DNA of 38,169 nucleotides, taken from positions 78,839 to 117,007 of the forward strand of contig JAHJKA010000071.1 in the NCBI GenBank assembly GCA_018822545.1, in the 5' to 3' direction. Under the pieces are notes generated by a model. It did not search any database, was not told where the DNA came from, and worked only from the letters and a program-made list of their open reading frames with translations. Positions within the stretch are counted from its first letter, which is position 1. Each line of letters opens with the position of its first letter. The translations under genes and the position numbers were made by a program. Source of the DNA: Pseudomonadota bacterium (lineage in GTDB: Bacteria > Desulfobacterota > Desulfobulbia > Desulfobulbales > SURF-16). Positions 10,998 through 26,991 of this stretch are shown one piece after another.

Positions 10998-12410
10998 TTA
11001 AAACAGGCTGCTGTTGATAACAAGATGGGCGTAGATACTGGCTGCATAGCCCAGGGCTACAATGGGCATCCATTTGAGATGGGCGCCAAAGGTGTAGATA
11101 CCGCGGGCACTTCCCATCAGGGCGACGCCGGCAGCGGAACCGATGGAGAGCAGACTGCCGCCAACGCCGGCGGTGAGAGTAACAAGCAGCCACTGGCCCA
11201 GGGCCATATCAGGGTTCATGGTCAGCACGGCAAACATCACCGGGATGTTATCCACGATGGCGGATAACACACCCACCAGGACATTGGCATTGGTGGCTCC
11301 CAATCCCTGATACATCTGATGGGATACCAGGGCCAGATAGCCAAACTGCGAAAGACCGCCCACGCAGAGGATGACGCCGTAGAAGAAGAGCAGGGTGTCC
11401 CACTCGGCCCGGGCGATCTTTTTGAAAAGATCAAAGGGCTCCATTGCACCGCTGCTTTGATGGCCAAGGACCGGGTCAAGTTGCAGCTCCCGTTTTTCAA
11501 CCTTCTTGATGTAGTAGGAAAAGAAACCGAGATAGGAAAGACCCAGCATCATGCCAGCTGCCGGCGGCAGATCCAGAAAATTATGAAAGGAGACCGCTGT
11601 GGCAATGGTGGCCAGAAAAAGGATGATGATGCGAACAGCACCAAATTTCATGGCGACCTTCTCGGTAAGGGCCGCAGGAACCTCTTTGGAGATAGCAAGG
11701 CTCATGATGGCAGCGGGCACCAGCCAGTTGATCAGGGCTGGGAAGAAGAGGGCAAAGAACTGACCAAAGGCCACCTGACCCTTCTGCCAGACCATGAGGG
11801 TGGTGATATCGCCGAAGGGTGAGAAAGCACCACCGGCGTTGGCGCCAACCACGATGTTGATACAGGCCAGAGCCACGAATTTTTTGTTATCCTTGGCAAC
11901 GGCCATAACCACGGCACCCATGAGTAGGGCAGTGGTCAGGTTATCGGCCACCGGTGAGATCAAAAAGGCGAGCAGGCCGGTGATCCAGAAGATAATCCGC
12001 AGGGAAAAGCCCCGGGAGACAAGCCAGGAGCGCAGGGCCTGAAAGACATTGCGCTCTTCCATGGAGTTGATGTAGGTCATGGCGGCGAGCAAAAAGAGCA
12101 GCAGCTCGGCATACTCGGTGATGTTGTGGATGATGGCGTCGTGCGCTGTTTCAGCTGGAATGCCGACCTGTTTATAGGTTAAGGCAATGAGGACCCAGAT
12201 GAGACCAGCGGCCATCATCACCGGCTTACTCTTGCGCAGGTGAAGTTGTTCTTCGAAAATAACCAGGGAATAGGCGCCGACAAAAAGGGCAATGGCGATA
12301 TAGCCCATGGTGGTGTTGGTGAGAGAAGCGGCACTCTGGGCATGTTCGGATGCCAGCGCCGGCAGGCAGCTGAAAAGGAGGCAGCCCAGGGTTGCCAGTA
12401 GAGTCTTCAT
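10998..12410 (-). CDS. nhaD: NhaD-type sodium/proton antiporter
   Basis: From the ATG at 12410 (GGAG site 11 bases upstream) the protein has 470 residues. It starts with a signal-like segment (MKTLLATLGCLLFSCLPALA) that is typical of NhaD, then about 11-12 membrane segments. Family motifs include AELLLFLLAAMTYINSMEERN, ISPVADNLTTALLMGAV and NIVVGANAGGAFSPFGDITT, which hold the conserved polar and acidic residues of the ion-transporter superfamily. NhaD exchanges cytoplasmic sodium for external protons and is common in marine and alkaliphilic bacteria. It follows the SLC13-type permease by 94 bases and probably shares its sigma-54 promoter. A longer start at 12485 would overlap the intergenic hairpin and is unlikely. 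Confidence 0.92.
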   Translation of the reverse strand: MKTLLATLGCLLFSCLPALASEHAQSAASLTNTTMGYIAIALFVGAYSLVIFEEQLHLRKSKPVMMAAGLIWVLIALTYKQVGIPAETAHDAIIHNITEYAELLLFLLAAMTYINSMEERNVFQALRSWLVSRGFSLRIIFWITGLLAFLISPVADNLTTALLMGAVVMAVAKDNKKFVALACINIVVGANAGGAFSPFGDITTLMVWQKGQVAFGQFFALFFPALINWLVPAAIMSLAISKEVPAALTEKVAMKFGAVRIIILFLATIATAVSFHNFLDLPPAAGMMLGLSYLGFFSYYIKKVEKRELQLDPVLGHQSSGAMEPFDLFKKIARAEWDTLLFFYGVILCVGGLSQFGYLALVSHQMYQGLGATNANVLVGVLSAIVDNIPVMFAVLTMNPDMALGQWLLVTLTAGVGGSLLSIGSAAGVALMGSARGIYTFGAHLKWMPIVALGYAASIYAHLVINSSLF

Positions 12411-12440
12411 GGTAATTACGCTCCAAAGTTTAAGTATAAA

Positions 12441-12477
12441 CGCCCCCAGGCCTTGGTCGAAACACGGCCTGGGGGCG
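12441..12477 (-). terminator. Strong intergenic hairpin between SLC13 permease and nhaD
   Basis: CGCCCCCAGGCC (12441-12452) is perfectly complementary to GGCCTGGGGGCG (12466-12477), with a 13-base loop. On the minus strand only a broken T-rich tail (TTTATACTT) follows, so it may be a partial terminator or an mRNA-stabilising hairpin that sets different levels of the two genes. Confidence 0.55.
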
Positions 12478-12504
12478 CAAGACAAAACAGCTTTTTGGGA
12501 TTTT

Positions 12505-14310
12505 TTAGATACCGTAAAAGAAGTAGATCATGGACATCATGACCGCGAGGTATAGAACGGTCATGCCGCTGCCTGCCCGGAAATAATCGATGGTTTTGTA
12601 ACCACCCGGCCGCATGATCAGGGCATTGACCTGATGGGTGGGGAGTACAAAGGTGTTTGAGCAGGCGACGGCGACAACCAGTGCTGCCATGCGGGGATCA
12701 GCACCGGCTGATACCGCCATGTTCATGGCCAGCGGCACCATGAGCACGGTGGCGCCGACATTGGAGGCCACCAGGGTGAAAAAGGAGGTCAGCAGGCCAA
12801 TAACGGTGAGCAGGACAAGGGGCGACACGGTACCAATGGCGTTCATGATCGTGGTGGCAATGAAGTTTGCGGCACCGGTCTTTTCAAAGGCGATGCCCAG
12901 GGGGATAAGGCCGCCCAACAGGAAGACCGTCATCCAGTCCACAGAATCGTAGGCCTCGTCAATGGACAACACACCACTGAGAATCATACCCAAGGCGCCG
13001 CCCAGCAATGCGATGGACAATTGGACTTTGAAGCCGAGGATCATGATCAATGAAATAATAAGCCAACCCACGGCATACTTAAGCTTCTCGGTTTTGATGA
13101 TCTCGCCCTGTACCTCTTCGGTGAAGACCAAATCCGGTTTCTTCTTAAGCATAAGGAATTTTTCCCAGCGGCCCTGGAGGAGCAGGGCGTCACCCGGCTG
13201 CAGGGGGATATCGGAGATGCCGGAGACAAATACCTTGTTGCCCCGAAAAATACCCATGGGGTTGACCTGGTAGTTTTTGCGGAACTCAAAGGCGCGCATG
13301 GTCTTGCGGGCCAGTTCGGATCTTGGGGTGATAATGGCCTCGATGATACCGGCGTTGTTGGGGGAAAGGTCTTCGGCAAAGGCGGAAAGATCATCCTTGA
13401 CGGTCCAGCCAAAATGTTTGGCCATTGCGGTGACCATTTCCTTGGTACCAACCACGGCGACATCATCACCGGGGTTGATTTCAGTGTCCCTTTTGGGGGC
13501 AAAAACCTTTTGCTTGGTCTTGTTGTTGGAGACACCCACCACGGTGGTAAAGAATTGCGGGCGAATTTCCAGCTCTTCCAGGGGCTGCTGGCCTTGCCAA
13601 TCTTGCGGGACATGGAGCTCAAACAGCGTACCCATGTCGCGATAGGTGTTCTGGAGGGCGGGTGACATGGCGGCACCGGTCTCATCGCCTTTGGCGCTGG
13701 GCAGAACAAAGCGTCCGAACACGATGAAGTAGATAAGGGCGGCAACGGTGAGCGCCAGGCCGATGGGGGTTACTGAAAAAAGGCCGAACGGTTCAATGTT
13801 CGGATTGGTGATCTTCATCACGTCATTTAAAAGAATGAGCGGGCTTGAGCCGATCAGGGTGATGCAGCCACCGATAATGGCGCAATAGCCCATGGGGATC
13901 AAGATTTTGGAAACCGGGATGCCGGTCTGGCGCCCGATTCTGCGGGCCGCTGGCATGAAGAGGGCGGCGGCGCCGATATTCTGCATAAAGCTTGAGATAA
14001 AGGCGACGGTTGAGGCGATCAGGGTGACGATCCTGGCCTCGCTTTTACCGGCGAATTTCAGGATCAAGCGGGCCAGTGAGTTCATAGCCCCTGTTTTGTC
14101 CAGTCCTGCGCCGATAATAATAACCGCAATAATGGACACGACGGCATTACTGGACAAGCCGCTGATGGCCTCTTTAGGGGTAACCAAACCAAGCAACGGT
14201 AGGCAGACCATCATGATAAGTCCGACGACGTCCACCCGTACCCATTCGAAAATGAATAAAAGGATGGCAACGAACAGCACTCCCATAACGAGCATAATAG
14301 GAACAGTCAT
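12505..14310 (-). CDS. SLC13-family permease with two TrkA-C (RCK_C) domains
   Basis: This 601-residue membrane protein has two hydrophobic halves (about 1-210 and 415-601) separated by a cytoplasmic part. That part holds two RCK_C-type domains, about 228-310 (ending DDVAVVGTKEMV) and 320-400 (ending GDALLLQGRWEKF). The permease motifs IGAAALFMPAARRIG and SNVGATVLMVPLAMN with GSSPLILLND and PTHQVNALIMRPGGY fit the divalent anion:sodium symporter group, whose members move sulfate, dicarboxylates and similar anions. A sulfate or other sulfur anion substrate is plausible in this organism but not shown. The adjacent NhaD could sustain the sodium gradient. The gene is preceded by a near-perfect sigma-54 promoter at 14431-14446. 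Confidence 0.88.
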   Translation of the reverse strand: MTVPIMLVMGVLFVAILLFIFEWVRVDVVGLIMMVCLPLLGLVTPKEAISGLSSNAVVSIIAVIIIGAGLDKTGAMNSLARLILKFAGKSEARIVTLIASTVAFISSFMQNIGAAALFMPAARRIGRQTGIPVSKILIPMGYCAIIGGCITLIGSSPLILLNDVMKITNPNIEPFGLFSVTPIGLALTVAALIYFIVFGRFVLPSAKGDETGAAMSPALQNTYRDMGTLFELHVPQDWQGQQPLEELEIRPQFFTTVVGVSNNKTKQKVFAPKRDTEINPGDDVAVVGTKEMVTAMAKHFGWTVKDDLSAFAEDLSPNNAGIIEAIITPRSELARKTMRAFEFRKNYQVNPMGIFRGNKVFVSGISDIPLQPGDALLLQGRWEKFLMLKKKPDLVFTEEVQGEIIKTEKLKYAVGWLIISLIMILGFKVQLSIALLGGALGMILSGVLSIDEAYDSVDWMTVFLLGGLIPLGIAFEKTGAANFIATTIMNAIGTVSPLVLLTVIGLLTSFFTLVASNVGATVLMVPLAMNMAVSAGADPRMAALVVAVACSNTFVLPTHQVNALIMRPGGYKTIDYFRAGSGMTVLYLAVMMSMIYFFYGI

Positions 14311-15673: not shown

Positions 15674-16894
15674 ATGAAGTGGCACGCGGTAGCTCTGCGG
15701 CGGAAGTCAGCACTTGTGCTGGCTGGTTTCTTTTTGCTGCTCACCGGGATTTCATGTGCAGCACTACTGCATGTCAGGCAGATCAATCAACAATTGTTCC
15801 TTGCGGACACGGCCGCACAGCTTCACACTCTCATGGTAAAGAGCAGCCATTTTGCAGAGGGGTACATTGCCAAGAACGACCCGCAGGCATATGAGCAGCT
15901 TGAGGACGGGTTGAAAAAGGCCCGGGCGCATCTTCGGCTGATGACCGGCCTCCTGGTTGCGATACTGCTTGTGACAAGTGCCCTTGTTGTCTGGGTGTGG
16001 CAGGGGCTTTTAAAACCCTTGAAGGCGGTGGTCAGCGCTGCCCAGGCGGTTGCAGACAATACCTATGAGCCAATTCCCCTTAAGGACGGGCCAGCTGAGA
16101 TACGCCAGGTCTTGTTGGTCTTTAACGCCATGGCTGCGGACACTTCTCCTCGGCATGCTCAGGTGCTGGAGACTGCGAAGCTCAACTCTTTGGGGACCTT
16201 GGCCTCAGGGGCCGCCCATCAACTCAATAATCCATTGAATAATATTTCCACCTCCTGCCAGATTGCCCTGGCAGAACTTGACGAGGGGGATCTCGTTTTC
16301 ATCAAAAAAATGCTGCATACCATTCAGCAGGAATCACAGCGGGCCAGTAATATGGTCCGTGGCCTCCTGGAATTTTCGAGAAGCCAGATTGTCCATCTTG
16401 CCCCGGGTCATATGGGCACTATTGTCAGAGGGGTTCTGCAGCTGGTTGACGGTGAGGTGCCGGCTGGGGTTGCCATCAAAACGGATATTGCCGACAACCT
16501 TCTGGTTCATATCGACAGCCAGAAGATGACAGAGGTTATGCTTAATCTGGTGAGCAACAGCATTCATGCCCTTGGGGAAAATGGCGGGGTAATTTCCATA
16601 TCGGCCAGGGCCGATGACGAGCAGGCTCAGGCGATTGTCAAGGTGCGGGACACCGGAGAGGGTATTGATAAGGGGCAGCTCAAAAATATATTTGAGCCCT
16701 TTTTTACCACCAAGAAAGCACTAGGTGGCGCCGGTCTGGGCCTGGCCATCGTCGATGCCATCATCCGGAAACATCAGGGCCGGATAACGGTGGAGAGCAT
16801 AGGGGGTGAGGGAACCGAGTTCACCATCACCCTGCCCCTGCTTCATATTGACCAGGACGCCGCAGCCCTGGACGGAAATAACAAGAAGGTTTGA
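15674..16894 (+). CDS. Membrane sensor histidine kinase (NtrB-like) with HQ in place of HE
   Basis: The 406-residue kinase has two membrane helices (about 12-33 and 90-112) around a small periplasmic domain of only about 55 residues, then a HAMP-like linker. A HisKA domain follows with the phospho-accepting H182 in GAAHQLNNPLNN, then an HATPase domain (NLVSNSIHAL, DTGEGI, GGAGLGLAI). The residue after the histidine is Gln rather than the usual Glu or Asp of this class, which could change kinase or phosphatase activity. It is followed after one base by an NtrC-family regulator, its evident partner. The periplasmic region is not recognisable as a known sensor. Confidence 0.88.
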   Translation: MKWHAVALRRKSALVLAGFFLLLTGISCAALLHVRQINQQLFLADTAAQLHTLMVKSSHFAEGYIAKNDPQAYEQLEDGLKKARAHLRLMTGLLVAILLVTSALVVWVWQGLLKPLKAVVSAAQAVADNTYEPIPLKDGPAEIRQVLLVFNAMAADTSPRHAQVLETAKLNSLGTLASGAAHQLNNPLNNISTSCQIALAELDEGDLVFIKKMLHTIQQESQRASNMVRGLLEFSRSQIVHLAPGHMGTIVRGVLQLVDGEVPAGVAIKTDIADNLLVHIDSQKMTEVMLNLVSNSIHALGENGGVISISARADDEQAQAIVKVRDTGEGIDKGQLKNIFEPFFTTKKALGGAGLGLAIVDAIIRKHQGRITVESIGGEGTEFTITLPLLHIDQDAAALDGNNKKV

Positions 16895-16895
16895 G

Positions 16896-18299
16896 ATGTT
16901 GATTGAAGAGCAGATACATATTTTGATCGTGGACGACGAGCAGATTAACCTCGAAAATATCAGCCATGTCCTAAGTAAAGATGGCTATCGTGTAGCAACC
17001 GCCAACTGCGGACGGGACGCCTTGGAAAAGGTCGATGTGCAGCACTATGACCTGGTGGTAACTGATCTGCGTCTTGGCGATATGGATGGCGTTGGCGTCA
17101 TGGAGTATATCAAGCAGCACAGTCCGGATACTGAGGTCGTTGTTGTCACCGGCTATGCCACCGTCAATTCTGCGGTGGAGGCCATGTCCAAAGGTGCCTT
17201 TTATTATCTGCCGAAACCCTTTTCCTTCAACCAGTTGCGCGAGGTGATTCGCAGCGCCCTGGAGAAGTCAGAGCTCAAGAGGGAGATCACCCATCTCCGG
17301 CAACAGCTCAATGCTAATCGGGGGGCAACGCAGTTCATCGGCCACAATCCCGCTATTCTTAAGCTTAAGGATGATATTGCCCAGGTTGCCCAACTTGATT
17401 GCAATGTCATGATTAACGGGGAAACGGGCACCGGCAAGGAGTTGGTGGCAAGGACCATTTATGAGTTGAGTCCCCGTTGTCAAAAACGATTTCTGCCCAT
17501 CAACTGCGGTGCTCTCACCGAAGAACTGATGCTCAATGAACTTTTCGGTCATGAGAAGGATGCCTTCACCGGCGCCAGCAAATGGCGGAAAGGATTGCTG
17601 GAGTCTGCCCATGGCGGGGTGGTTCTGCTGGATGAGGTGGGGGAGATGCCGCTCATGATGCAGGTCAAGCTCCTGCGTGTTTTGCAGGAGAAAAAGATCA
17701 TCCGGGTGGGTGGTACTGAGGAAATCCCGGTGGATGTGCGGATTTTGGCCGCCACCAACCGGGATCTCAAGCTGGAGACGGAGCAAAAGCGTTTCCGGAC
17801 CGATCTCTATTACCGCCTCAACGTGGTTTCTCTCTATATCCCGCCCCTGCGCAGCCGCAAGGATGATATCCCCGCCCTTGTCCGGCATTTCCTGGCAAAA
17901 TATCCCACAGTGGACGGCCAGGTAAAAACCATTACCGACGAGACCCTGCAGCTTATCATGAATTATGATTTCCCCGGTAATGTCAGGGAGCTGGAAAATG
18001 TCCTGGAGAGGGCTTTGGCCATGTGCAACCGTGAGGAGGTGAGGCCGGAAGATCTGTCGCCAGAGATAAGGAAGGGGGGTGGAATTCGTGCGTTGCCGCA
18101 GGTTATCCCAGGGGGCGGTCCGCCCCGGGTGAATCTCGACGAGAATGAACGCAACCACATTCTGGCCGTTTTAAAAATGGAGGAGGGCAACCAGACCAGG
18201 GCTGCCAAGATCCTCGGTATTGCCCGCGTCTCTTTGTGGCGCAAGTTGAAAAAGTATCAGGATGAAGGCTATGATGTGGAGGCTTATCTCCGCGCCTGA
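16896..18299 (+). CDS. NtrC-family sigma-54 response regulator, variant GAFTGA loop
   Basis: The start ATG at 16896 lies one base after the kinase stop; a longer frame from 16806 merely overlaps the kinase. The 467-residue protein has a receiver domain (D57 in DLVVTDLRLG, K107 in LPKPF), an AAA+ domain with Walker A GETGTGKE (175-182), the arginine-finger and sensor regions (FRTDLYYRLNVV), and a Fis-type HTH (NQTRAAKILGIARVSLWRKL). The sigma-54 contacting loop reads DAFTGA (222-227), with Asp replacing the first Gly of GAFTGA; the regulator at 23968 has the normal loop. This is a rare change that may alter activation of sigma-54 polymerase. Its targets may include the sigma-54 promoters in this window. 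Confidence 0.93.
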   Translation: MLIEEQIHILIVDDEQINLENISHVLSKDGYRVATANCGRDALEKVDVQHYDLVVTDLRLGDMDGVGVMEYIKQHSPDTEVVVVTGYATVNSAVEAMSKGAFYYLPKPFSFNQLREVIRSALEKSELKREITHLRQQLNANRGATQFIGHNPAILKLKDDIAQVAQLDCNVMINGETGTGKELVARTIYELSPRCQKRFLPINCGALTEELMLNELFGHEKDAFTGASKWRKGLLESAHGGVVLLDEVGEMPLMMQVKLLRVLQEKKIIRVGGTEEIPVDVRILAATNRDLKLETEQKRFRTDLYYRLNVVSLYIPPLRSRKDDIPALVRHFLAKYPTVDGQVKTITDETLQLIMNYDFPGNVRELENVLERALAMCNREEVRPEDLSPEIRKGGGIRALPQVIPGGGPPRVNLDENERNHILAVLKMEEGNQTRAAKILGIARVSLWRKLKKYQDEGYDVEAYLRA

Positions 18300-18419: not shown

Positions 18420-18986
18420 CTAGGCGGCTGCGCCATGGAAACTGTTGAGGTCAAAGACCGGAATGGTGACTCTGCCATTCATGGCCTGGGCAACTTCTGG
18501 GTCCGGCTCGGTGAGTACATAGCGCATGCCTGGATACTCGGCATGCAGTTTTTCAACGATGGCATCCTGGTTGCCGACCTCGGCCATGTGGCCGAACTGA
18601 ATGCCTTTTTCGGTGGCCTGCTGGTGAAAAAGAGCCATGTTGGCGATGCTGTTGTTTTTGAAAAGCTCGGTTGCTGCTGCCTGCTCGGCGGCAGCCAGGG
18701 CCAGGGGCTCTTCAGTGCAGCTCAGGGCGATGATCTCAAATTCCATCCTTTGGGCCATGGTGAGGGCATACTCGGTGAGCAATCCGGAAAAGCTGTCTTC
18801 GCGCCCGATGACGAGCATTTTTTTGCAGCCTATGGAGGTGTCCATCATCCGTTTGGCGGTGTCATGCTCGCCGGCCTCAGCAAAGGCTACTGCCGCTGCG
18901 GCGTCCTGCAGGGTATTCTGTTTGCGCTCGCTGACCTTAATTGTTTCGTTCTTTTTGTTTTTCTTGAACATGTCAAAAAAACCCAT
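18420..18986 (-). CDS. Universal-stress-like protein with N-terminal FAEAGE segment
   Basis: A strong AGGAGG site precedes the ATG at 18986. The 188-residue protein starts MGFFDMFKKNKKNET, then carries a FAEAGE segment (28-52, AVAFAEAGEHDTAKRMMD), then an alpha/beta core (56-188) with KKMLVIGREDSFSGLLTEYA, FEIIALSC and GMRYVLTEPDPE, PVFDL. The core is paralogous to the 14934-15485 product, which lacks the FAEAGE segment. It is the last gene of a four-gene minus-strand unit. The USP-like fold is inferred from its pattern of strands and helices; ligand and partner are unknown. Confidence 0.78.
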   Translation of the reverse strand: MGFFDMFKKNKKNETIKVSERKQNTLQDAAAAVAFAEAGEHDTAKRMMDTSIGCKKMLVIGREDSFSGLLTEYALTMAQRMEFEIIALSCTEEPLALAAAEQAAATELFKNNSIANMALFHQQATEKGIQFGHMAEVGNQDAIVEKLHAEYPGMRYVLTEPDPEVAQAMNGRVTIPVFDLNSFHGAAA

Positions 18987-19042
18987 GGTACTACCTCCTG
19001 AAATTAAGAAAAATTAGTGTAAAAATAGTATGTTATGTTTTT

Positions 19043-19552
19043 TTAAACCTCGGCCTGCACCATCACCACCGGGATGGTTAATCCCTTGGTGATGGATTTG
19101 AGGTCGTTTTTTATCTGTCGTGCCGTCGCCTTCGGGTTATTGCCCCGTGGCGTATCATAGACCGTGATAACGATGTCTTTATTATCGCGGACATAATCCA
19201 GTATTTCTTTGTTGGTGTCGCCTGTCCTTACTAATAAGTCGCAGCTGACACCGGCCCGGGTGGATTCAGGTAAGAGCTTGGAGATGTTTCTCTTGGCCTC
19301 GTCCATCAGGGCGTTGGCTGTTTCATGCTCACCGGCCTCCGCAAAGGTTGCCGCCATCATGGAGCCTTCGATGAGGCGTTTGGCGTTATTTGCGGTGTTT
19401 TTCAATTTGCTGATATAGCCGCCGAGATCATGGGGCCTGACAACCTGGAGAACCTTTAAGTCAGCCTTGATTCTCATGCAGAGGTCAACGGCGTATTTAA
19501 AGGCCTTGGTGTCCGGCATCGTCCCGTTTATGGCAAGTAAAACTTTTTCCAT
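19043..19552 (-). CDS. Universal stress protein with embedded FAEAGE segment
   Basis: The 169-residue product has a recognisable UspA start, MEKVLLAINGTMPDTKAFKYA and DLKVLQVV, and end, DIVITVYD and IPVVMVQAEV. A FAEAGE segment (61-85, SMMAATFAEAGEHETANALM) lies in the region after the second strand. The segment is nearly the same as in the two neighbouring small proteins and in the 18420-18986 product. The usual USP phosphate-binding glycine/serine motif near the C-terminus is weak (RGNNPKATARQI), so ATP binding is uncertain. It is the third gene of the unit, 35 bases after the second small gene. The ribosome binding site is weak. Confidence 0.82.
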   Translation of the reverse strand: MEKVLLAINGTMPDTKAFKYAVDLCMRIKADLKVLQVVRPHDLGGYISKLKNTANNAKRLIEGSMMAATFAEAGEHETANALMDEAKRNISKLLPESTRAGVSCDLLVRTGDTNKEILDYVRDNKDIVITVYDTPRGNNPKATARQIKNDLKSITKGLTIPVVMVQAEV

Positions 19553-19587
19553 CTGCGTGTTACCTTGGTGGTTATGATCCGCGCTTC

Positions 19588-19761
19588 TTAGACCCGCAGC
19601 TCAGGACGCTGCGTGGTTTTGCGGAGTCTGGAGTCTTTTTGGTTGTCGCTGGTTTTGCGGTTGAGCATTTCAACGGCGGTATCGGGCTCACCGGCCTCGG
19701 CAAAGGTGATTGCCATCATGAACCGGTCCCACATGCTGAGTTTGCTGTTTTTTTGTGACAT
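19588..19761 (-). CDS. FAEAGE small protein 2 (57 aa)
   Basis: The ATG at 19761 follows a GAGGAG site; an upstream in-frame ATG at 19776 lies within that spacer and is less likely. The 57-residue product has a helical core MWDRFMMAITFAEAGEPDTA followed by VEMLN, then a basic, polar tail ending TTQRPELRV. It is a paralog of the 19828-19992 product in both core and tail. No signal peptide or membrane span is evident. The pattern A--FAEAGE--TA--ML resembles a single TPR-like helix pair; I know of no assigned function. Confidence 0.75.
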   Translation of the reverse strand: MSQKNSKLSMWDRFMMAITFAEAGEPDTAVEMLNRKTSDNQKDSRLRKTTQRPELRV

Positions 19762-19827
19762 GGTGTTTCTCCTCACTGATTTTGTATTTTAATGGTGGTT
19801 AAAGTCGAGGTTGTTGGCCTTCTGGTT

Positions 19828-19992
19828 CTAGAAGCGAATCTCAGGTCGCTGAGCTGTTCTCTGGCCAACTCTGGCTTCAGACCGTTTATTGTTCAGGAAA
19901 TCACAGGCTGTACCGGCTTCACCGGCTTCAGCAAAGGTGATTGCCATCATGATTTTGTCCCAGGTGGTGATTTTTTCGAAATAGGTTTTCAT
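19828..19992 (-). CDS. FAEAGE small protein 1 (54 aa)
   Basis: An AAGGAGG site lies 8 bases before the ATG at 19992. The translated product reads MKTYFEKITTWDKIMMAITF then AEAGEAGTACDFLNNKRSEA, then RVGQRTAQRPEIRF. It aligns with the neighbouring 57-residue protein through the WD+-MMAITFAEAGE--TA--(F/M)LN core and the T-QRPE(I/L)R(F/V) end, so the two are tandem duplicates. It is the first gene of the unit and lies 67 bases downstream of a sigma-54 promoter. The gene is short enough that routine gene calling is likely to miss it. Confidence 0.75.
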   Translation of the reverse strand: MKTYFEKITTWDKIMMAITFAEAGEAGTACDFLNNKRSEARVGQRTAQRPEIRF

Positions 19993-20058: not shown

Positions 20059-20074
20059 AGCAATCCCTGTGCCA
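20059..20074 (-). promoter_or_regulatory. Sigma-54 promoter of the FAEAGE/stress-protein unit
   Basis: The minus strand reads TGGCACAGGGATTGCT, matching TGGCACGNNNNTTGCW at 11 of 12 defined positions (only G7 differs), with exact spacing. The start would be near 20048, giving a leader of about 56 bases to the first small gene. Confidence 0.8.
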
Positions 20075-20322: not shown

Positions 20323-22350
20323 ATGGGCTTGTTCGGTAATTGGCAGGGCTCTGAGAGCGATGAGGGTGACGATGGCGGGCTGGCCGAGATCAACGGTCTG
20401 CGCCAGGCGGTCCGTGGTGCCAAGATGCCTGCCCGGGTGGAAAAGGTGGCGCTCAAGGAGATCGACCGTTTGCTCAAGACCAATTCTGCCGCCACCGAAT
20501 ACACCATTGGCATCAATTATATAGAGTATCTTACCAGCCTGCCCTGGAACTTCACCACCGACGATAATCTGGACCTGGCCCACGCCAAGCATATTCTTGA
20601 TGCCGAGCATTATGGCCTGGAGAACATTAAAGAGCGTATCCTTGAGTACCTGGCCGTCCGCAAGCTGAAGCTGGCCTGTCGCCATAAGGTCCTGGTGGTT
20701 GATGATGAGAAGGTGGCTCGCCGCAACATGAAGCATGTTCTGGCCAAGGACGGTTATGAGGTGACCAGCGTCGCCGGTGGGGCTGAGGCCCTGCTGCTCC
20801 TGGAGAGCCAGCGTTTCGACCTGATTGTCACCGACCTGAAAATGGCGGGGGTGGATGGTATGCAGCTCCTCGAAAAGGCCAAGGCCGCTGATCCTGGCGT
20901 TGAGGTGATCATGGTCTCTGGCTTTGCCACCACGCCGGCCGCGGTTGAGGCCATGAAAAAGGGCTCCTATTATTTCCTCACCAAGCCTTTCCAGCTCGAC
21001 GAGTTGCGGGACATGGTGCGCAAGGCCCTCAAGCAAAAGGAAATGCGCGTTGGCGGCAAGGGCCCTATTCTGTGTTTTGTCGGGCCGCCAGGAACCGGCA
21101 AAACCTCCCTGCAGCAATCAATAGCCCACTGCCTGGGCCGCAAATTCATCAGGATTTCCCTGGCCGGCATGAAGGATGAGGCGGAGATTCGCGGCCACCG
21201 ACGCAGTTATGTTGGGGCCTTGCCCGGTCGGATCATCCAGGAAATTCGCCGCACCGGATCCAAAAATCCCCTGGTGATGCTTGATGAGATCGATAAGATC
21301 GGTCAGGATTTCAAGGGCGATCCGGCCTCGGCTTTACTTGAAGTGCTTGACCATACCCAGAACAGCCATTTTATCGATCATTATCTGGATGTGCCTTTTG
21401 ACCTGTCCCAGGTCATGTTCATTGCCACCGCCAACACCACGGACCCTATTCCCGCCCCTCTTGTCGACCGCATGGAGGTCATCTCTCTTTCCGGCTATGC
21501 CGAAGAGGAGAAGGAGCAGATTGCTGAACGTTTTCTGATCCCTCGAGCGGTGGAAGAGACCGGACTTGCCAGCAACCCGCCGCAATTCACCCCAGAGGCG
21601 ATACTGAAAATCATCCGCGATTATACCCGGGAGTCAGGCCTGCGGGGCCTGCAGGGCCAGTTCGCCGCCATCTGCCGGAAATTGGCCCGGAAGGTGGTGA
21701 ATAATTCCGCCGAGAACGATCTGATCATTACCCCGGAAAAGGTCGAAGAGTTGCTGGGGCCCCGGCGCTATTTTTTTGAGGTCGCCGAGGTGCGACAGAT
21801 GATCGGGGTTGCCACCGGCTTGGCTTTAACGGAAGCAGGGGGACAGATCATCTTTGTCGAAGCGCTCATCATGAAGGGCAAAGAACAATTGATCATGACC
21901 GGCTCTCTGGGCGGGGTCATGAAAGAATCGGCCCAGGCGGCCTTGAGTTATGTGCGCAGTCAGGCGAAGTCTTTTCACATCGCCGATGATTTTTTCGAAG
22001 GGCATGATATCCATATCCATATCCCGGCCGGCGCCATCCCCAAGGATGGCCCTTCTGCCGGACTCACCATCGCCGTCAGTCTGATCTCGCTGTTGACCAG
22101 GCGGCCGGTGCAACTGGACATGGCCTTTACCGGGGAGTTGACCCTCTGCGGGCGGATTTTGCCGGTGGGCGGCATCAAGGAAAAGATTCTGGCTGCCCGG
22201 CGGGCCGGGATCACCAAAATCGTCCTGCCCTTAAGAAATAAGGTTGATCTCTACGATATCCCCGCCAACGTGACGCAGGATATCGAAATTGTTGTCACCG
22301 ACGAAATCAACAAGGTTATCGAGCTGGCTCTGGGCCCGCCGGTTTTATAA
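20323..22350 (+). CDS. Lon-type ATP-dependent protease with inserted response-regulator receiver domain
   Basis: The 675-residue protein lacks the N-terminal LAN substrate-binding domain of Lon. It begins with the Lon helical region (about 22-118: EINGLRQAVRGAKMP, EYLTSLPWN, HYGLENIKERILEYLAVRKL). A complete receiver domain follows (about 121-240; D127, D128, phospho-acceptor D171 in DLIVTDLKM, S199, K221 in TKPF). Then the Lon AAA+ module resumes with GPILCFVGPPGTGKTS (Walker A 254-261), GHRRSYVGALPGR, Walker B MLDEID and the peptidase domain with catalytic S578 (PKDGPSAG) and K619 (GGIKEK). The receiver replaces only the few residues that usually link ILEYLAVRKL to the Walker strand, so phosphorylation could directly gate the protease. 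A kinase and regulator follow downstream. All catalytic residues are intact. Confidence 0.93.
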   Translation: MGLFGNWQGSESDEGDDGGLAEINGLRQAVRGAKMPARVEKVALKEIDRLLKTNSAATEYTIGINYIEYLTSLPWNFTTDDNLDLAHAKHILDAEHYGLENIKERILEYLAVRKLKLACRHKVLVVDDEKVARRNMKHVLAKDGYEVTSVAGGAEALLLLESQRFDLIVTDLKMAGVDGMQLLEKAKAADPGVEVIMVSGFATTPAAVEAMKKGSYYFLTKPFQLDELRDMVRKALKQKEMRVGGKGPILCFVGPPGTGKTSLQQSIAHCLGRKFIRISLAGMKDEAEIRGHRRSYVGALPGRIIQEIRRTGSKNPLVMLDEIDKIGQDFKGDPASALLEVLDHTQNSHFIDHYLDVPFDLSQVMFIATANTTDPIPAPLVDRMEVISLSGYAEEEKEQIAERFLIPRAVEETGLASNPPQFTPEAILKIIRDYTRESGLRGLQGQFAAICRKLARKVVNNSAENDLIITPEKVEELLGPRRYFFEVAEVRQMIGVATGLALTEAGGQIIFVEALIMKGKEQLIMTGSLGGVMKESAQAALSYVRSQAKSFHIADDFFEGHDIHIHIPAGAIPKDGPSAGLTIAVSLISLLTRRPVQLDMAFTGELTLCGRILPVGGIKEKILAARRAGITKIVLPLRNKVDLYDIPANVTQDIEIVVTDEINKVIELALGPPVL

Positions 22351-22498: not shown

Positions 22499-23971
22499 AT
22501 GAAATGGCCATGGTCAAACAGTATCGCTCGTCGCATCAAGTGGGGATACTATATTCTTGTTGCCCTGGTGGCCATTGGCTTTGTCACCACCGCCATCTTT
22601 CTGTCCCAGGTCGAGTCGATGGTGCGCTCCCTGGAGAAAGACTCCAAACTCCTGGATACCATCCTGGAGATCCGGCGCTATGAAAAGAACTGGATTCTTT
22701 ACAAACAGGAGACCGATTTTAACACCAACAGCCAGTTGATTGCCACGGCAATGGGTCTGCTTAATACCCTTGACAAAGAGATCCCCGGGGTCAACGGAAA
22801 TGCAGTGATTCGGGTGTCCCCTGATGATATCAAAGAGGTTCTGGTGAGCTATAACGGTTTGATGGAGGCAGAATTTGAGTGTTTGCACGAGGGATTCCCC
22901 CACCAGATGCTGGATAAAATACGCGAAAAAGGCAAGCAGCTCGTTGAGATGGTTGAGGCCAGGAACGTGCTGGTGCGGAAATCCATTGATGAAACGACGC
23001 GAAAGGTGAAGGCGAACTCTTTGTTGTTTCTGCTCTGTGTTTTTGTCGTCGCCCTGGTGCTTGGCAAGCAGCTTTCCAAGTCGGCGGTGAGCCCATTGCG
23101 GCAGATTGTTAAGTGTACCAAGATGGTGGCCGCCGGTGAAAAGGACTTGAGCGCTGTTCTTGATTCGAACATGGCCCTGGATGAGGTAAGCACCGTGGTG
23201 AGCGCCTTTAAAGGCATGCTTGAGAAACTTGAACACCGGGAAAAACTGGTTATCAAGAGTGAGAAGCTCGCTGCCGTGGGAACCCTTGTGGCCGGTGTTG
23301 CCCATGAATTAAACAACCCCCTGTCCAATGCCGGCACCTCAGCCCAGATCCTTTTGGAGGAAATGCGCGAATCAGAAGAGCTGCCTCGGCAGTTTATTAT
23401 GGAAATGCTTGAGCAGATCACCGAGCAGACGGACAGAGCCCGGCTCATCGTGCGCTCGCTTCTTGAATTCTCCCGGGAAAAGGCGGTCAATTCCAGAGAC
23501 CTGAAGGTAAGTGATATTCTGCACCAGACCTTGGATCTGGTTAGGGGCGAGATTCCCACGAATGTCGAAACTCGGGTGTATGTGGATACGGATGGTGTTT
23601 TCCGGGGCGATAAACAACGTCTGCAGCAGGCCTTGGTCAATCTGCTGCTCAATGCCTTTCATGCCGTTGAGGATATTGACGGCGGTAAAATTGTCATCCG
23701 TGGCAATTTTGACCAGGAGACCATGAAGGTTCGCCTGGAAGTGGCTGACAATGGCCCGGGAATTCCATTGGAGATTAAAAAGAACATCTTTGATCCTTTC
23801 TTCACCACCAAGGATGTTGGTGAAGGTTCAGGCCTGGGGCTGGCTATCACCCGGGAGATCATCGATAAGCATGGTGGCGATATCAGTGTGGAAACGAGTC
23901 CTGCCACCGGCACCAAATTTATTATTACCCTTCCTGTGGTGGTTGACGCTGCCGGGGAGTTGGATACATGA
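22499..23971 (+). CDS. Membrane sensor histidine kinase (NtrB-like)
   Basis: The 490-residue kinase has membrane helices at about 15-37 and 172-190 around a 135-residue mostly helical periplasmic domain (ILEIRRYEKNWILYKQETDF, a pattern seen in four-helix sensor domains). A HAMP linker (about 192-245), HisKA with H269 in VAGVAHELNNPLSN, and HATPase (NLLLNAFHAV, DNGPGIP, GEGSGLGLAI) follow. The H-box has the normal Glu. A GGAGG site precedes the ATG. The stop overlaps the next start by four bases (ATGA), coupling it to the regulator at 23968. Its position after the receiver-Lon gene makes it the prime candidate to phosphorylate that protease too. Confidence 0.93.
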   Translation: MKWPWSNSIARRIKWGYYILVALVAIGFVTTAIFLSQVESMVRSLEKDSKLLDTILEIRRYEKNWILYKQETDFNTNSQLIATAMGLLNTLDKEIPGVNGNAVIRVSPDDIKEVLVSYNGLMEAEFECLHEGFPHQMLDKIREKGKQLVEMVEARNVLVRKSIDETTRKVKANSLLFLLCVFVVALVLGKQLSKSAVSPLRQIVKCTKMVAAGEKDLSAVLDSNMALDEVSTVVSAFKGMLEKLEHREKLVIKSEKLAAVGTLVAGVAHELNNPLSNAGTSAQILLEEMRESEELPRQFIMEMLEQITEQTDRARLIVRSLLEFSREKAVNSRDLKVSDILHQTLDLVRGEIPTNVETRVYVDTDGVFRGDKQRLQQALVNLLLNAFHAVEDIDGGKIVIRGNFDQETMKVRLEVADNGPGIPLEIKKNIFDPFFTTKDVGEGSGLGLAITREIIDKHGGDISVETSPATGTKFIITLPVVVDAAGELDT

Positions 23972-25314
23972 ATAAAATAAGAATACTTGTTGTTGACGAT
24001 GAAAAGATAGCCGTGCGCAACCTTCAGCATATCCTCGAAAAAGAGGGGTATGAGGTGGAAACTGCGTCGGGTGGTGCCCAGGCTCTCCAAGTGCTCGATC
24101 GCGCTGAGGATAACGAATTTGATCTGGTCCTCACCGATCTGAAGATGCCCGGGGTGGACGGCATGGCGGTGCTTGCCAAGACCAAGTTGCGTTATCCTGA
24201 CGCTGAGGTCATCATGATAACCGGCTATGCCACCGTTGACTCGGCCATAGAGGCCCTGAAGGCCGGGGCTTATCATTATATCGCCAAACCCTTCAAACTT
24301 GATGAGGTGCGGCGGGTGGTGAAAGAGGCCCTGGAAAAACAGGTGCTCAAGCGAGAAAACCGGCAATTGAAGGAAAAGCTGGCCAAGGCCCAGGGTCTAT
24401 CGATTATTACCGATGATCCCCAGATGCGGGAGCTGTTGCGGACTGCCCGCCACATCGCCAAGGGCGAGGTCAGTATCTTGATCACCGGCGAGTCCGGAAC
24501 GGGTAAAGAGCTCATGGCCCGCTATCTCCATGAAAATAGTCCGCGCGTGGCCGGGCCTTTTGTCGCTGTCAATTGCGGGGTGTTCACCGAGGAGCTGTTG
24601 TCCAATGAGTTGTTCGGCCATGAAAAGGGGGCTTTTACCGGCGCCGATCGGGAAAAAATAGGTCTGATTGCCTCGGCCGGTGGCGGCACCCTGTTCCTCG
24701 ATGAGATCACCGAGATGTCCCTGGGCATGCAGGTTAAGTTGCTGCGTGCCCTTCAGGAAAAGGAGATCCAGCCCTTGGGGGCCGTGCAGCCCATCAAGAT
24801 TAATGTTCGTTTTGTGGCGGCCACCAACAGGGACATTCTGAAGATGGTCCGGGAAGGGCTTTTTCGCCAGGACCTCTATTTTCGCATCAATGTCATGAAT
24901 ATCCACCTGCCCCCCCTGGCTGAGAGGCGCAAGGATATCCCTCTGCTCACCAAGCATTTTGTCGACAAGTACAACTCACGCATGGGCAAAAACGTTACCG
25001 AGGTGGCCCCCGAGGCCATGCAGCAGCTTAAAGACTACGACTATCCCGGGAATATCCGTGAACTGGAGAACATTGTCGAGCGGGCCGTGGTGTTGGCCCG
25101 GGGTGATACCATTGAAAGCGAACATCTGCCGGAGATGGCGGTGCACACCTATCGAACCCCCAAGGGCGCCCTGCCCTCCCTGGATGAGCAAGAGCGATCT
25201 TATATAGAGCTTGTTTTGGAGCAGACCCAGGGCAACCGCACCAAGGCCGCGGAAATTCTGGGTATTGATCGGGTGTCATTATGGCGGAAACTCAAAAAAT
25301 ATATGCTTGAGTGA
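23968..25314 (+). CDS. NtrC-family sigma-54 response regulator
   Basis: The 448-residue protein has a receiver domain (D10, D11, D57 in DLVLTDLKMPG, K107 in AKPF), a central AAA+ domain with GESGTGKE (174-181), an intact GAFTGA loop (221-226), FRQDLYFRINVM, and a C-terminal Fis-type HTH (NRTKAAEILGIDRVSLWRKL). Such proteins bind enhancer-like dyads and activate sigma-54 polymerase when phosphorylated. It is coupled to the preceding kinase. Its receiver is similar to that inside the Lon-type protease (both have DL-VTDLKM-GVDGM), suggesting that the protease domain was copied from a regulator of this kind. Confidence 0.96.
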   Translation: MNKIRILVVDDEKIAVRNLQHILEKEGYEVETASGGAQALQVLDRAEDNEFDLVLTDLKMPGVDGMAVLAKTKLRYPDAEVIMITGYATVDSAIEALKAGAYHYIAKPFKLDEVRRVVKEALEKQVLKRENRQLKEKLAKAQGLSIITDDPQMRELLRTARHIAKGEVSILITGESGTGKELMARYLHENSPRVAGPFVAVNCGVFTEELLSNELFGHEKGAFTGADREKIGLIASAGGGTLFLDEITEMSLGMQVKLLRALQEKEIQPLGAVQPIKINVRFVAATNRDILKMVREGLFRQDLYFRINVMNIHLPPLAERRKDIPLLTKHFVDKYNSRMGKNVTEVAPEAMQQLKDYDYPGNIRELENIVERAVVLARGDTIESEHLPEMAVHTYRTPKGALPSLDEQERSYIELVLEQTQGNRTKAAEILGIDRVSLWRKLKKYMLE

Positions 25315-25547: not shown

Positions 25548-26528
25548 ATGTTGGGGAAAATGAAGGAAAGAGTCGGAGTTCTGCTTGCAGCACTCATCTG
25601 GTCAGTCATGCTCTGCCCGGCCCTGGTCTGGGCCAGTGAGGCGACTGCTGAATCGCCGGTGCCGATCAGCGCTGCCGGGGACTGGTGGCATTGGCCGCTG
25701 ATCCTGCTGGGTGTAACGTTTATTATGGGCATCATTGCCGTACTGGGCGGTGTTGGCGGCGGCGTGTTGTTCGTACCGATCATCAGCGGCTTCTTCCCGT
25801 TCCATCTTGATTTTGTCCGCGGCACCGGTCTGCTTGTTGCCCTCTGCGGCGCCCTGGCCGCCGGCCCTGGTCTGCTCAAGGCCAATCTGGCCAGTCTCCG
25901 TCTGGCATTGCCGGTGGCCCTGATCGCTTCCACCATGGCCATTGTCGGTGCCATGGTTGGTCTGGCCCTGCCCACCCATATCGTCCAGCTTGCCCTTGGT
26001 GGTACCATCCTTGGTATTGTCGCGATCATGCTGATCGCCAAAAAATCGGCAGTTCCTGATGTCAAGGAGGCGGACGCACTCTCTTCTGCCTTGAGGATCT
26101 GCGGTGTATATCACGACCAGGCCACTAACGAGACCATCAACTGGAAGGTTCATCGTACTATCCCTGGCTTGCTGACCTTTATCATCATCGGCTTTATGGC
26201 AGGAATGTTCGGTCTTGGTGCCGGTTGGGCCAATGTCCCGGTCCTCAATTTAATGATGGGCGCGCCGCTTAAGATCAGTGTGGCCACCAGTAAATTCCTG
26301 CTTTCCATCACCGACACCTCTGCCGCCTGGATCTATCTGAACAAGGGTTGTGTTATCCCGATGATGGTCGTTCCTTCGTTGATCGGCATTATGCTGGGTT
26401 CCCTCGTCGGCGTTCGGCTGCTCAAGGTCGCCAAGCCGACCTTTATCCGTTGGATGGTTATCGCGATTCTGCTTTTCGCCGGAGTCAAGGCCGTAACGAA
26501 GGGCCTGAGCTCAATGGGCATCATGTAA
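25548..26528 (+). CDS. TSUP (TauE/SafE) family transporter
   Basis: The 326-residue membrane protein starts after a GAGG-GGAGG site. A signal-like first segment (10-27) is followed by about eight membrane helices. The two characteristic TSUP repeats are visible: GIIAVLGGVGGGVLFVPII near 65-83 and FMAGMFGLGAGWANVPVLNL near 210-230. TSUP proteins export or import small sulfur anions such as sulfite, sulfoacetate or thiosulfate-related compounds. Context (sulfur-linked cytochrome, rhodanese, small membrane partner) favours a sulfur anion, but substrate and direction cannot be read from sequence. Confidence 0.9.
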   Translation: MLGKMKERVGVLLAALIWSVMLCPALVWASEATAESPVPISAAGDWWHWPLILLGVTFIMGIIAVLGGVGGGVLFVPIISGFFPFHLDFVRGTGLLVALCGALAAGPGLLKANLASLRLALPVALIASTMAIVGAMVGLALPTHIVQLALGGTILGIVAIMLIAKKSAVPDVKEADALSSALRICGVYHDQATNETINWKVHRTIPGLLTFIIIGFMAGMFGLGAGWANVPVLNLMMGAPLKISVATSKFLLSITDTSAAWIYLNKGCVIPMMVVPSLIGIMLGSLVGVRLLKVAKPTFIRWMVIAILLFAGVKAVTKGLSSMGIM

Positions 26529-26547
26529 ATTACTGGAGGATATGATT

Positions 26548-26991
26548 ATGACTAATGAACCAACCCTGCAAGCAACCGAGGAGCAGCTGCTCTACGCCAA
26601 TCTCCTTGGCAAAGGCATGTTAATTGGCCTGGCGATGATGTTTGTCACCTTCGCCCTCTATGTATTTGGCATCATAAAGCCCGTGGTGCCCTTGGACCAG
26701 GTTGCCAGTATGTGGACCCAGCCGGTCCATGAGTATCTCGTCTCGGTGAACGAAAATTTTCTCCATGGTGATCATCTCATCACCGGTTGGGCCTGGATGC
26801 CTCTGCTCGGCAAGGGTGATTTTTTAAACTTTATGCCGATAGCGCTTCTGTCAGGTATCACCATTGTCTGCTACGCAGTCATTACGCCAGGTCTGTTTAG
26901 GCGTGGGGACAAAGCCATGGCAATTATGGCAGTTGCCGAGGTGCTTATCCTGTCCTTGGCTGCCAGCGGCCTGTTGGCTGTAGGGCATTAA
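26548..26991 (+). CDS. Small membrane protein, partner of the TSUP transporter
   Basis: The ATG at 26548 is preferred because GGAGGA ends 7 bases before it; the ATG at 26542 is too close to that site. The 147-residue product has three predicted membrane helices (about 20-45, 90-110 and 118-140) and a hydrophilic central loop (DQVASMWTQPVHEYL, LHGDHLITGWAWMPLLGKGD). Its last part (LLSGITIVCYAVITPGLFRR then GDKAMAIMAVAEVLILS) resembles the small DUF1634-type proteins often encoded beside TSUP transporters, but that assignment is tentative. It lies 19 bases after the transporter stop and is probably co-transcribed. Confidence 0.75.
   Translation: MTNEPTLQATEEQLLYANLLGKGMLIGLAMMFVTFALYVFGIIKPVVPLDQVASMWTQPVHEYLVSVNENFLHGDHLITGWAWMPLLGKGDFLNFMPIALLSGITIVCYAVITPGLFRRGDKAMAIMAVAEVLILSLAASGLLAVGH

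What the first reader, a model, noticed from the sequence alone, without database searches (positions are those of the whole stretch)
20323..22350. Lon protease with a response-regulator receiver domain inserted just before its AAA+ domain
A full receiver domain (D127/D128, D171, S199, K221) sits between the Lon helical region ending ILEYLAVRKL and the Walker strand GPILCFVGPPGTGKT. The LAN substrate domain is missing, while Walker A/B and the Ser578/Lys619 catalytic pair are intact. Established knowledge: Lon is normally controlled by substrate recognition, and receivers normally control DNA binding or output enzymes. Inference: this is a protease switched by a histidine kinase, most likely the one at 22499, with the receiver replacing substrate recognition or blocking the hexamer until phosphorylated.
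Basis: partly seen in the sequence, partly recalled or inferred. Interest (0 to 1): 0.93.

Follow-up and report, generated by a model that had tools for sequence, protein, structure and literature searches.

The report
Lon protease with built-in kinase switch
This gene encodes an ATP-driven Lon protease with a two-component receiver domain built into its motor, so that a neighbouring sensor kinase likely switches protein degradation on or off; a relative was briefly described in 2011, but the switch itself is inferred and untested here.

Summary
ORF 20323-22350 (675 aa) is a Lon AAA+ protease without the LAN domain, with a complete receiver (REC) inserted inside the AAA+ module, between the helix ending EYLAVRKL and strand beta1. 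Two details change: the catalytic lysine is K621, not K619, and the insert lies within the AAA+ module rather than before it. It is no artefact: the insert has 139-141 residues in 347 of 347 homologues examined. It is not new as a kind: the Desulfovibrio relative DVU3303, with kinase and NtrC neighbours, was described in 2011 and 2023. New here: (1) a kinase-NtrC pair lies within 7 kb in 40 of 46 REC-Lon loci against 0 of 20 ordinary Lon loci; (2) Lon receiver and neighbouring NtrC receiver fall in one clade and share kinase-contact residues (N135 in 46/46 and 38/38, against 0/24 other receivers), pointing to one kinase serving both; (3) 23 of 46 loci encode, within 6 kb of REC-Lon, small proteins with a 'FAEAGE' element and a basic, often RP-rich C-terminus (predicted disordered for the window's copy), which are candidate clients. 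Phosphorylation, gating and clients are inferred. Verdict: new member of a known kind for which I found no biochemistry.

The parts
20323..22350 (+). REC-Lon protease, 675 aa
   Evidence: (TIGR00763 726 bits, cut-off 608)
20371..20676 (+). Lon helical N part and the helix before the insert (residues 17-118)
   Evidence: alignment to 3m6a and 7yph; secondary structure
20686..21042 (+). receiver domain insert (residues 122-240); phospho-acceptor D171 at 20833-20835
21058..21711 (+). AAA+ core and lid (residues 246-463)
21727..22332 (+). Lon S16 protease domain; S578 at 22054-22056, K621 at 22183-22185
22499..23971 (+). sensor histidine kinase (HisKA, HATPase; HAMP below cut-off), likely cognate
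23968..25314 (+). NtrC-type sigma54 activator; its REC is 53% identical to the Lon REC
25548..26528 (+). TauE/SafE-type anion exporter (resembles the anion transporter target of DVU3305, inferred)
26542..26991 (+). 149-aa protein without Pfam match (hydrophobic by eye), conserved beside TauE in some loci
19828..19992 (-). 54-aa FAE-element protein ending RPEIRF
19588..19761 (-). 57-aa FAE-element protein ending RPELRV
19043..19552 (-). universal stress protein carrying a FAE element
18420..18986 (-). Usp-like protein (no Pfam match itself) carrying a FAE element
20059..20074 (-). sigma54-type -24/-12 site TGGCACAGGGATTGCT pointing at the FAE/Usp genes; a matching site lies upstream of lon in L008. 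Weak alone: 5 such sites in the window, 5.4 expected
15674..16894 (+). second histidine kinase, alternative phosphate donor
16893..18299 (+). second NtrC-type regulator (start inferred inside the listed frame 16806-18299); its receiver lies in the same clade

Best explanation
The gene encodes a Lon AAA+ protease with a receiver domain spliced into its ATPase module, and it is likely a protease switched on by phosphorylation of D171 by the adjacent histidine kinase, which likely also phosphorylates the neighbouring sigma54 activator. Shown: architecture; conserved motor, protease and receiver residues; a nearly invariant insert length; the conserved kinase-NtrC neighbourhood; and the kinship and shared kinase-contact residues of the two receivers. 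Inferred: phosphotransfer; activation rather than inhibition, by the phosphorylated receiver pushing on the AAA+ fold through its two short fixed joints; and a preference for clients with disordered tails because LAN is missing. In this picture one signal makes NtrC transcribe the stress operon (Usp and FAE proteins, transporter) while REC-Lon degrades a client in the same pathway.
For: Receiver pocket in 347 homologues: D127 345 (E in 2), D128, D171 and K221 347 each, S/T199 347. Motor and protease: K260, T261, D321, E322, S578, K621 347 of 347; Y296, N371, R383, R441 347 of 347. Insert 139-141 residues in 347 of 347. Kinase-NtrC pair within 7 kb: 40 of 46 REC-Lon loci against 0 of 20 ordinary Lon loci. 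Receivers: 46 of 46 Lon RECs, 43 of 46 neighbour NtrC RECs and 1 of 24 other receivers of this genome in one group, SH-aLRT 99; in a chosen subset of 65 rows 98/96. At five kinase-contact positions Lon REC and partner REC are 68% identical against 47% over the rest of the domain; against 24 other receivers 9.6% and 31%. N135: 46/46, 38/38, 0/24. The AAA+protease tree separates 46 REC-Lons from 20 ordinary Lons by one branch, SH-aLRT 96. Published: D. vulgaris DVU3303-3305 pairwise cofitness above 0.9 (PMC10102598, passage).
Against: I found no biochemistry for any member (listings). 6 of 46 loci have no pair within 7 kb; one (L077) ends 519 nt beyond lon, but two others (L060, L061) are the closest relatives in this family, at 68% identity, with about 8 kb on each side. 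In L067/L068 the neighbouring NtrC receivers lie outside the clade and L067's lacks N135; these two were dropped from the 38-pair comparison. Of 6 further, second-ranked neighbour NtrC receivers only the window's has N135. The within-locus effect at contact positions is modest (permutation p 0.021), and the rest of the domain shows it too (p 0.0024), so it may be general co-inheritance. Receiver trees do not show one origin of Lon RECs (2 changes, 4) and carry long-branch warnings. Cofitness could come from polar transposon effects if lon is first in the operon, as in the window. No sigma54 site points at REC-Lon within 500 nt in 45 of 45 loci scored, although DVU3305 is reported to regulate its own operon.
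Confidence: 0.58

Rival explanations
1. Same switch, opposite sign: the unphosphorylated enzyme is active, and phosphorylation of REC blocks the ring or its assembly.
For: The REC sits in the AAA+ module with fixed joints, which allows either sign. N-truncated LonA without any REC degrades casein (PMC8087443 section 6), so the core needs no activator.
Against: In D. vulgaris mutants of protease, kinase and NtrC share the same fitness pattern, easier to explain if kinase and protease act in one direction.
Confidence: 0.25
2. The REC mainly tunes the kinase: REC-Lon is a phosphate sink or scaffold that competes with NtrC, and proteolysis is incidental.
For: The two receivers share contact residues and kinship.
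Against: The ATPase and protease residues checked are invariant in 347 homologues, which a pure sink would not need.
Confidence: 0.1
3. REC-Lon degrades its own NtrC or kinase as negative feedback.
For: Conserved adjacency; proteolysis of regulators by Lon is common (recalled).
Against: Cofitness above 0.9 in the same direction is not what a destroyer of its partner would show.
Confidence: 0.1
4. The join of REC and Lon is a misassembly or a decaying fusion.
For: The window is from a draft genome of 94 contigs.
Against: Same join in 347 of 347 homologues, insert length 139-141, including proteins on contigs of 3.99 Mb and 3.42 Mb.
Confidence: 0.01

Closest known systems
DVU3303 of Desulfovibrio vulgaris with DVU3304 (kinase) and DVU3305 (NtrC-type), PMC3333781 and PMC10102598
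   Same: Response regulator containing a Lon protease, beside a kinase and a sigma54 activator; Usp-type target genes upstream; anion transporter among the targets. The 2011 authors already suggested that phosphorylation may be needed for protease activity.
   Different: Different species and sequence. I did not fetch DVU3303 itself; the link rests on the published description and gene order. The sections and passages I saw do not mention the insert position, receiver kinship or FAE proteins.
LonA (endopeptidase La)
   Same: AAA+ core, lid and Ser-Lys protease; TIGR00763 726 bits over a cut-off of 608.
   Different: LAN domain absent; receiver inserted between the pre-AAA helix and beta1.
MtaLonA AAAP truncation (residues 1-241 removed; PMC8087443 section 6)
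   Same: Lon part begins at about the same place. That construct keeps activity on disordered casein and is severely impaired on unfolded Ig2.
   Different: No receiver; laboratory construct.
CpdR and RssB receiver adaptors of ClpXP (recalled; both names appear among the hits)
   Same: Works like them: a receiver couples two-component signalling to an AAA+ protease.
   Different: Those are separate adaptor proteins for ClpXP; here the receiver is part of Lon.

Membership tests
REC-Lon (DVU3303 type) | receiver domain and Lon protease in one chain | tested here: met
REC-Lon (DVU3303 type) | kinase and NtrC-type regulator genes beside it | tested here: met
REC-Lon (DVU3303 type) | Usp-type genes upstream | tested here: met
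   19043-19552 matches Usp PF00582 above cut-off; 18420-18986 has no Pfam match itself
REC-Lon (DVU3303 type) | phosphorylation controls protease activity | not testable with these tools
   proposed, not shown, in PMC3333781
LonA | AAA+ core plus Ser-Lys S16 protease | tested here: met
LonA | N-terminal LAN substrate domain | tested here: not met
   no LAN hit in Pfam; the chain starts at the helical N part
Response regulator | acidic pocket, phospho-acceptor Asp, Thr/Ser and Lys | tested here: met
Response regulator | accepts phosphate from a kinase | not testable with these tools
   inferred from neighbour and contact residues
CpdR/RssB adaptors | stand-alone receiver that delivers substrates to ClpXP | tested here: not met
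   the receiver is an insert in Lon

The most novel reading that the evidence does not exclude
A phosphorylation-gated Lon with a dedicated client class: small hairpin proteins with a 'FAEAGE' element and a disordered basic C-terminus ending RPELRV or similar (replaced in other lineages by Usp-membrane proteins with a similar tail) are the substrates or adaptors of REC-Lon, made by the NtrC arm and destroyed by the Lon arm of one kinase.
Probability: 0.2. Interest if true: 0.87.

Novelty: new member of a known kind. Interest (0 to 1): 0.57.

Why it matters
If the switch is real, bacteria can place an ATP-dependent protease directly under a sensor kinase, with no adaptor, and run transcription and proteolysis from one signal. 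The family occurs in at least 36 of 297 genomes sampled across the phylum, and the question is testable: one purified protein, one kinase, and named candidate clients. A receiver inside an AAA+ motor would also be a natural template for phospho-controlled proteases.

Tried and rejected
Assembly artefact: rejected. K619 as catalytic lysine: rejected. First sigma54 scan had an index error and found nothing; corrected. The corrected scan gives 5 sites in the window against 5.4 expected, so the site at 20074 rests only on its place and a matching site in L008. In one search a site pointing away from lon lay within 1.2 kb upstream in 8 of 46 loci, and one pointing at lon in 2 of 46 (L069, L103); 8 of the 9 second-subtype loci have one between lon and the Usp-like gene. 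First translation script mishandled minus-strand loci; later scripts use six frames. Genome-contig scan: 5 loci, only L008 is a full relative; L009-L012 are partial matches at 26-33% identity, not used. Foldseek/VIA-align listed Lon chains and a few other AAA+ or Lon-like chains; the REC was not folded or searched alone. Hexamer placement of REC could not be modelled. One search scored four candidates per genome and listed only the top matches, so 36 of 297 is a minimum, counted by hand from its rows. One further REC-Lon genome (G016, 5.7-kb contig) was seen and not fetched. 'Usp-like' means over 20 bits to one of two window proteins; of 10 such or tail-bearing neighbours checked in Pfam, 9 list Usp, only 1 above the curated cut-off, and L089 does not. 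FAE element: the profile was discovered on the same loci on which it was first counted, and one seed (L085, 7.8 kb from Lon) is probably false; the phylum test is partly circular, and five of the six positives held out of A2 had been in the discovery profile. FAE matches also occur in 20 of 261 genomes without a detected REC-Lon, so the element is not exclusive. In this family's 10 REC-Lon genomes of the second subtype there is none except one weak hit (E 0.001, 617-aa frame); the three genomes with strong hits were all in the profile. The C-terminal tail pattern was written after seeing examples. No paper search for the FAE element was made (10 of 10 paper searches used). PMC10643698 was seen in passages and not used.

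Full report

Is it intact? N135, Y296, N371, R383 and R441 are also 347 of 347, and the insert has 139, 140 or 141 residues in all 347. A fixed insert length fits tight mechanical coupling; this is inference.

How common? A full-length match spanning REC and Lon was listed in 13 of 22 genomes of the family and in at least 36 of 297 of the phylum. Names among the homologues include Desulfobulbales, Desulfobacterales, Desulfovibrio, Syntrophobacteraceae and Desulfocapsa. One is labelled 'response regulator receiver modulated ATP dependent protease', so annotators had seen the architecture.

Neighbourhood. 46 REC-Lon loci (window, L008, 44 stretches) were compared with 20 ordinary Lon loci by the same rule. 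A kinase and an NtrC gene side by side within 7 kb: 40 of 46 against 0 of 20. A Usp-like gene within 2 kb: 32 of 46 against 0 of 20. A TauE-like gene within 8 kb: 11 of 46 against 0 of 20. A few stretches end at contig ends and were kept in the counts. The six without a pair include L060 and L061, the two closest relatives in this family after the window's own. 'Usp-like' rests on similarity to two window proteins; of ten neighbours checked, nine list Pfam Usp but only one above its cut-off.

One kinase, two receivers. In a quick tree of 116 receivers, 46 of 46 Lon receivers and 43 of 46 receivers of neighbouring NtrC proteins fall in one group (SH-aLRT 99) with one of 24 other receivers from this genome's sigma54-activator loci (two neighbours without a receiver hit and two duplicates of window genes were left out). 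A careful tree of 65 rows (22 of 46 loci chosen, two long-branch rows left out) gives 98/96 for the same kind of group; both carry long-branch warnings. At the five helix-1 positions that contact kinases in Spo0F-type receivers (positions recalled), Lon and partner receivers are 68% identical against 47% elsewhere in the domain; against the 24 others they are 9.6% and 31% identical. N135 is present in 46 of 46 Lon receivers and 38 of 38 partners kept and 0 of 24 others; two first-ranked neighbours outside the clade (L067, L068) were dropped, and of six second-ranked neighbours only the window's has it. Pairing by locus is above permutations both at these positions (p 0.021) and in the rest (p 0.0024), so co-inheritance alone may explain that last effect. 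The second pair in the window (15674-18299) has a receiver in the same group, also with N at this position; loci of the second REC-Lon subtype (L095-L103) are paired with its relatives, so two kinases are candidates here.

Origin. The AAA+protease parts of 46 REC-Lons and 20 ordinary Lons separate on one branch (SH-aLRT 96, quick tree), which fits a single insertion; the receiver trees do not resolve this (2 changes, 4).

What it may degrade. A laboratory LonA lacking residues 1-241 still degrades disordered casein but is severely impaired on unfolded Ig2 (PMC8087443, section 6). REC-Lon starts at about the same place, so clients with disordered tails are expected (inference). Upstream of and divergent from REC-Lon the window encodes two small proteins of 54 and 57 aa; they share an element, roughly MMAITFAEAGExxTAxxxL, with the two Usp-like proteins on the same strand. 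A profile of it hits 23 of 46 REC-Lon loci and 0 of 20 controls; in all 23 a frame of at most 110 codons carries it, 0.1 to 5.9 kb from lon. In 297 genomes it hits 23 of 36 with REC-Lon and 20 of 261 without; because the profile came from 17 of the 36, the fairer figure is 6 of 19 against 20 of 261 (Fisher p 0.0042), with the caveat that five of the six had been seen before. Pfam has no match above cut-off for it, only weak hits such as TPR, and NCBIfam none for the two window proteins. A model from four sequences gives a two-helix hairpin with pLDDT near 90 over residues 11-30 and a C-terminal tail without structure at pLDDT 53-57. A C-terminal RPxLR pattern occurs in 11 of 4055 frames of the REC-Lon loci against 0.6 expected after shuffling (maximum 3); all 11 are upstream of and divergent from REC-Lon, none in the 20 control loci. 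Four are FAE proteins; seven are longer proteins that look like a Usp-type domain followed by a hydrophobic segment, though L089 has no Usp match.

Comparison with the known. PMC3333781 (sections 15 and 23 read) describes DVU3303 as a response regulator with a Lon protease, DVU3304 as kinase, DVU3305 as regulator of its own operon and of DVU3302-3298 with Usp-type proteins, and suggests that phosphorylation may be needed for protease activity; it places orthologues also in Thermodesulfovibrio, Thioalkalivibrio and Dechloromonas. PMC10102598 (passages) reports pairwise cofitness above 0.9 for the three genes, which are detrimental in chlorate, and names DVU3299, an anion transporter, as a target that is itself important in chlorate. 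PMC4641369 (passages) lists DVU3305 with these targets. The listings (titles and abstract starts, capped at 8 to 20 rows where more matched) showed no biochemical study of a REC-Lon; most subscription papers are not in that library.

Verdict. The architecture is real, conserved and in print. The window adds a new member; the work here adds the insert position, the kinship and contact residues of the two receivers, and a candidate client family. The kinase switch remains the best explanation (0.58), its sign and clients open.

Noticed in passing
window 15674-18299: A second kinase-NtrC pair on the same strand; its NtrC receiver belongs to the same clade, and its relatives are the partners of the second REC-Lon subtype in other genomes.
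   Followed up: partly
window 16893-18299: The second NtrC reads DAFTGA where sigma54 activators usually have GAFTGA (usual motif recalled; also listed).
   Followed up: no
window 18420-19992 (-): Four products in a row share the FAE element, two of them tiny; a sigma54-type site at 20074-20059 points at them.
   Followed up: yes
L069, L075, L076, L077, L086, L088, L089: Usp-type domain followed by a hydrophobic segment and a basic C-terminus ending in R-P-x-L-R and two or three more residues, divergent from REC-Lon.
   Followed up: partly
window 10998-14310 (-): Two CitMHS-type transporter genes side by side, one with TrkA_C domains.
   Followed up: no
G000:C70:22099-22596 (L138): The one other receiver of this genome's sampled activator loci that falls into the REC-Lon clade; its neighbourhood was not examined.
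   Followed up: no
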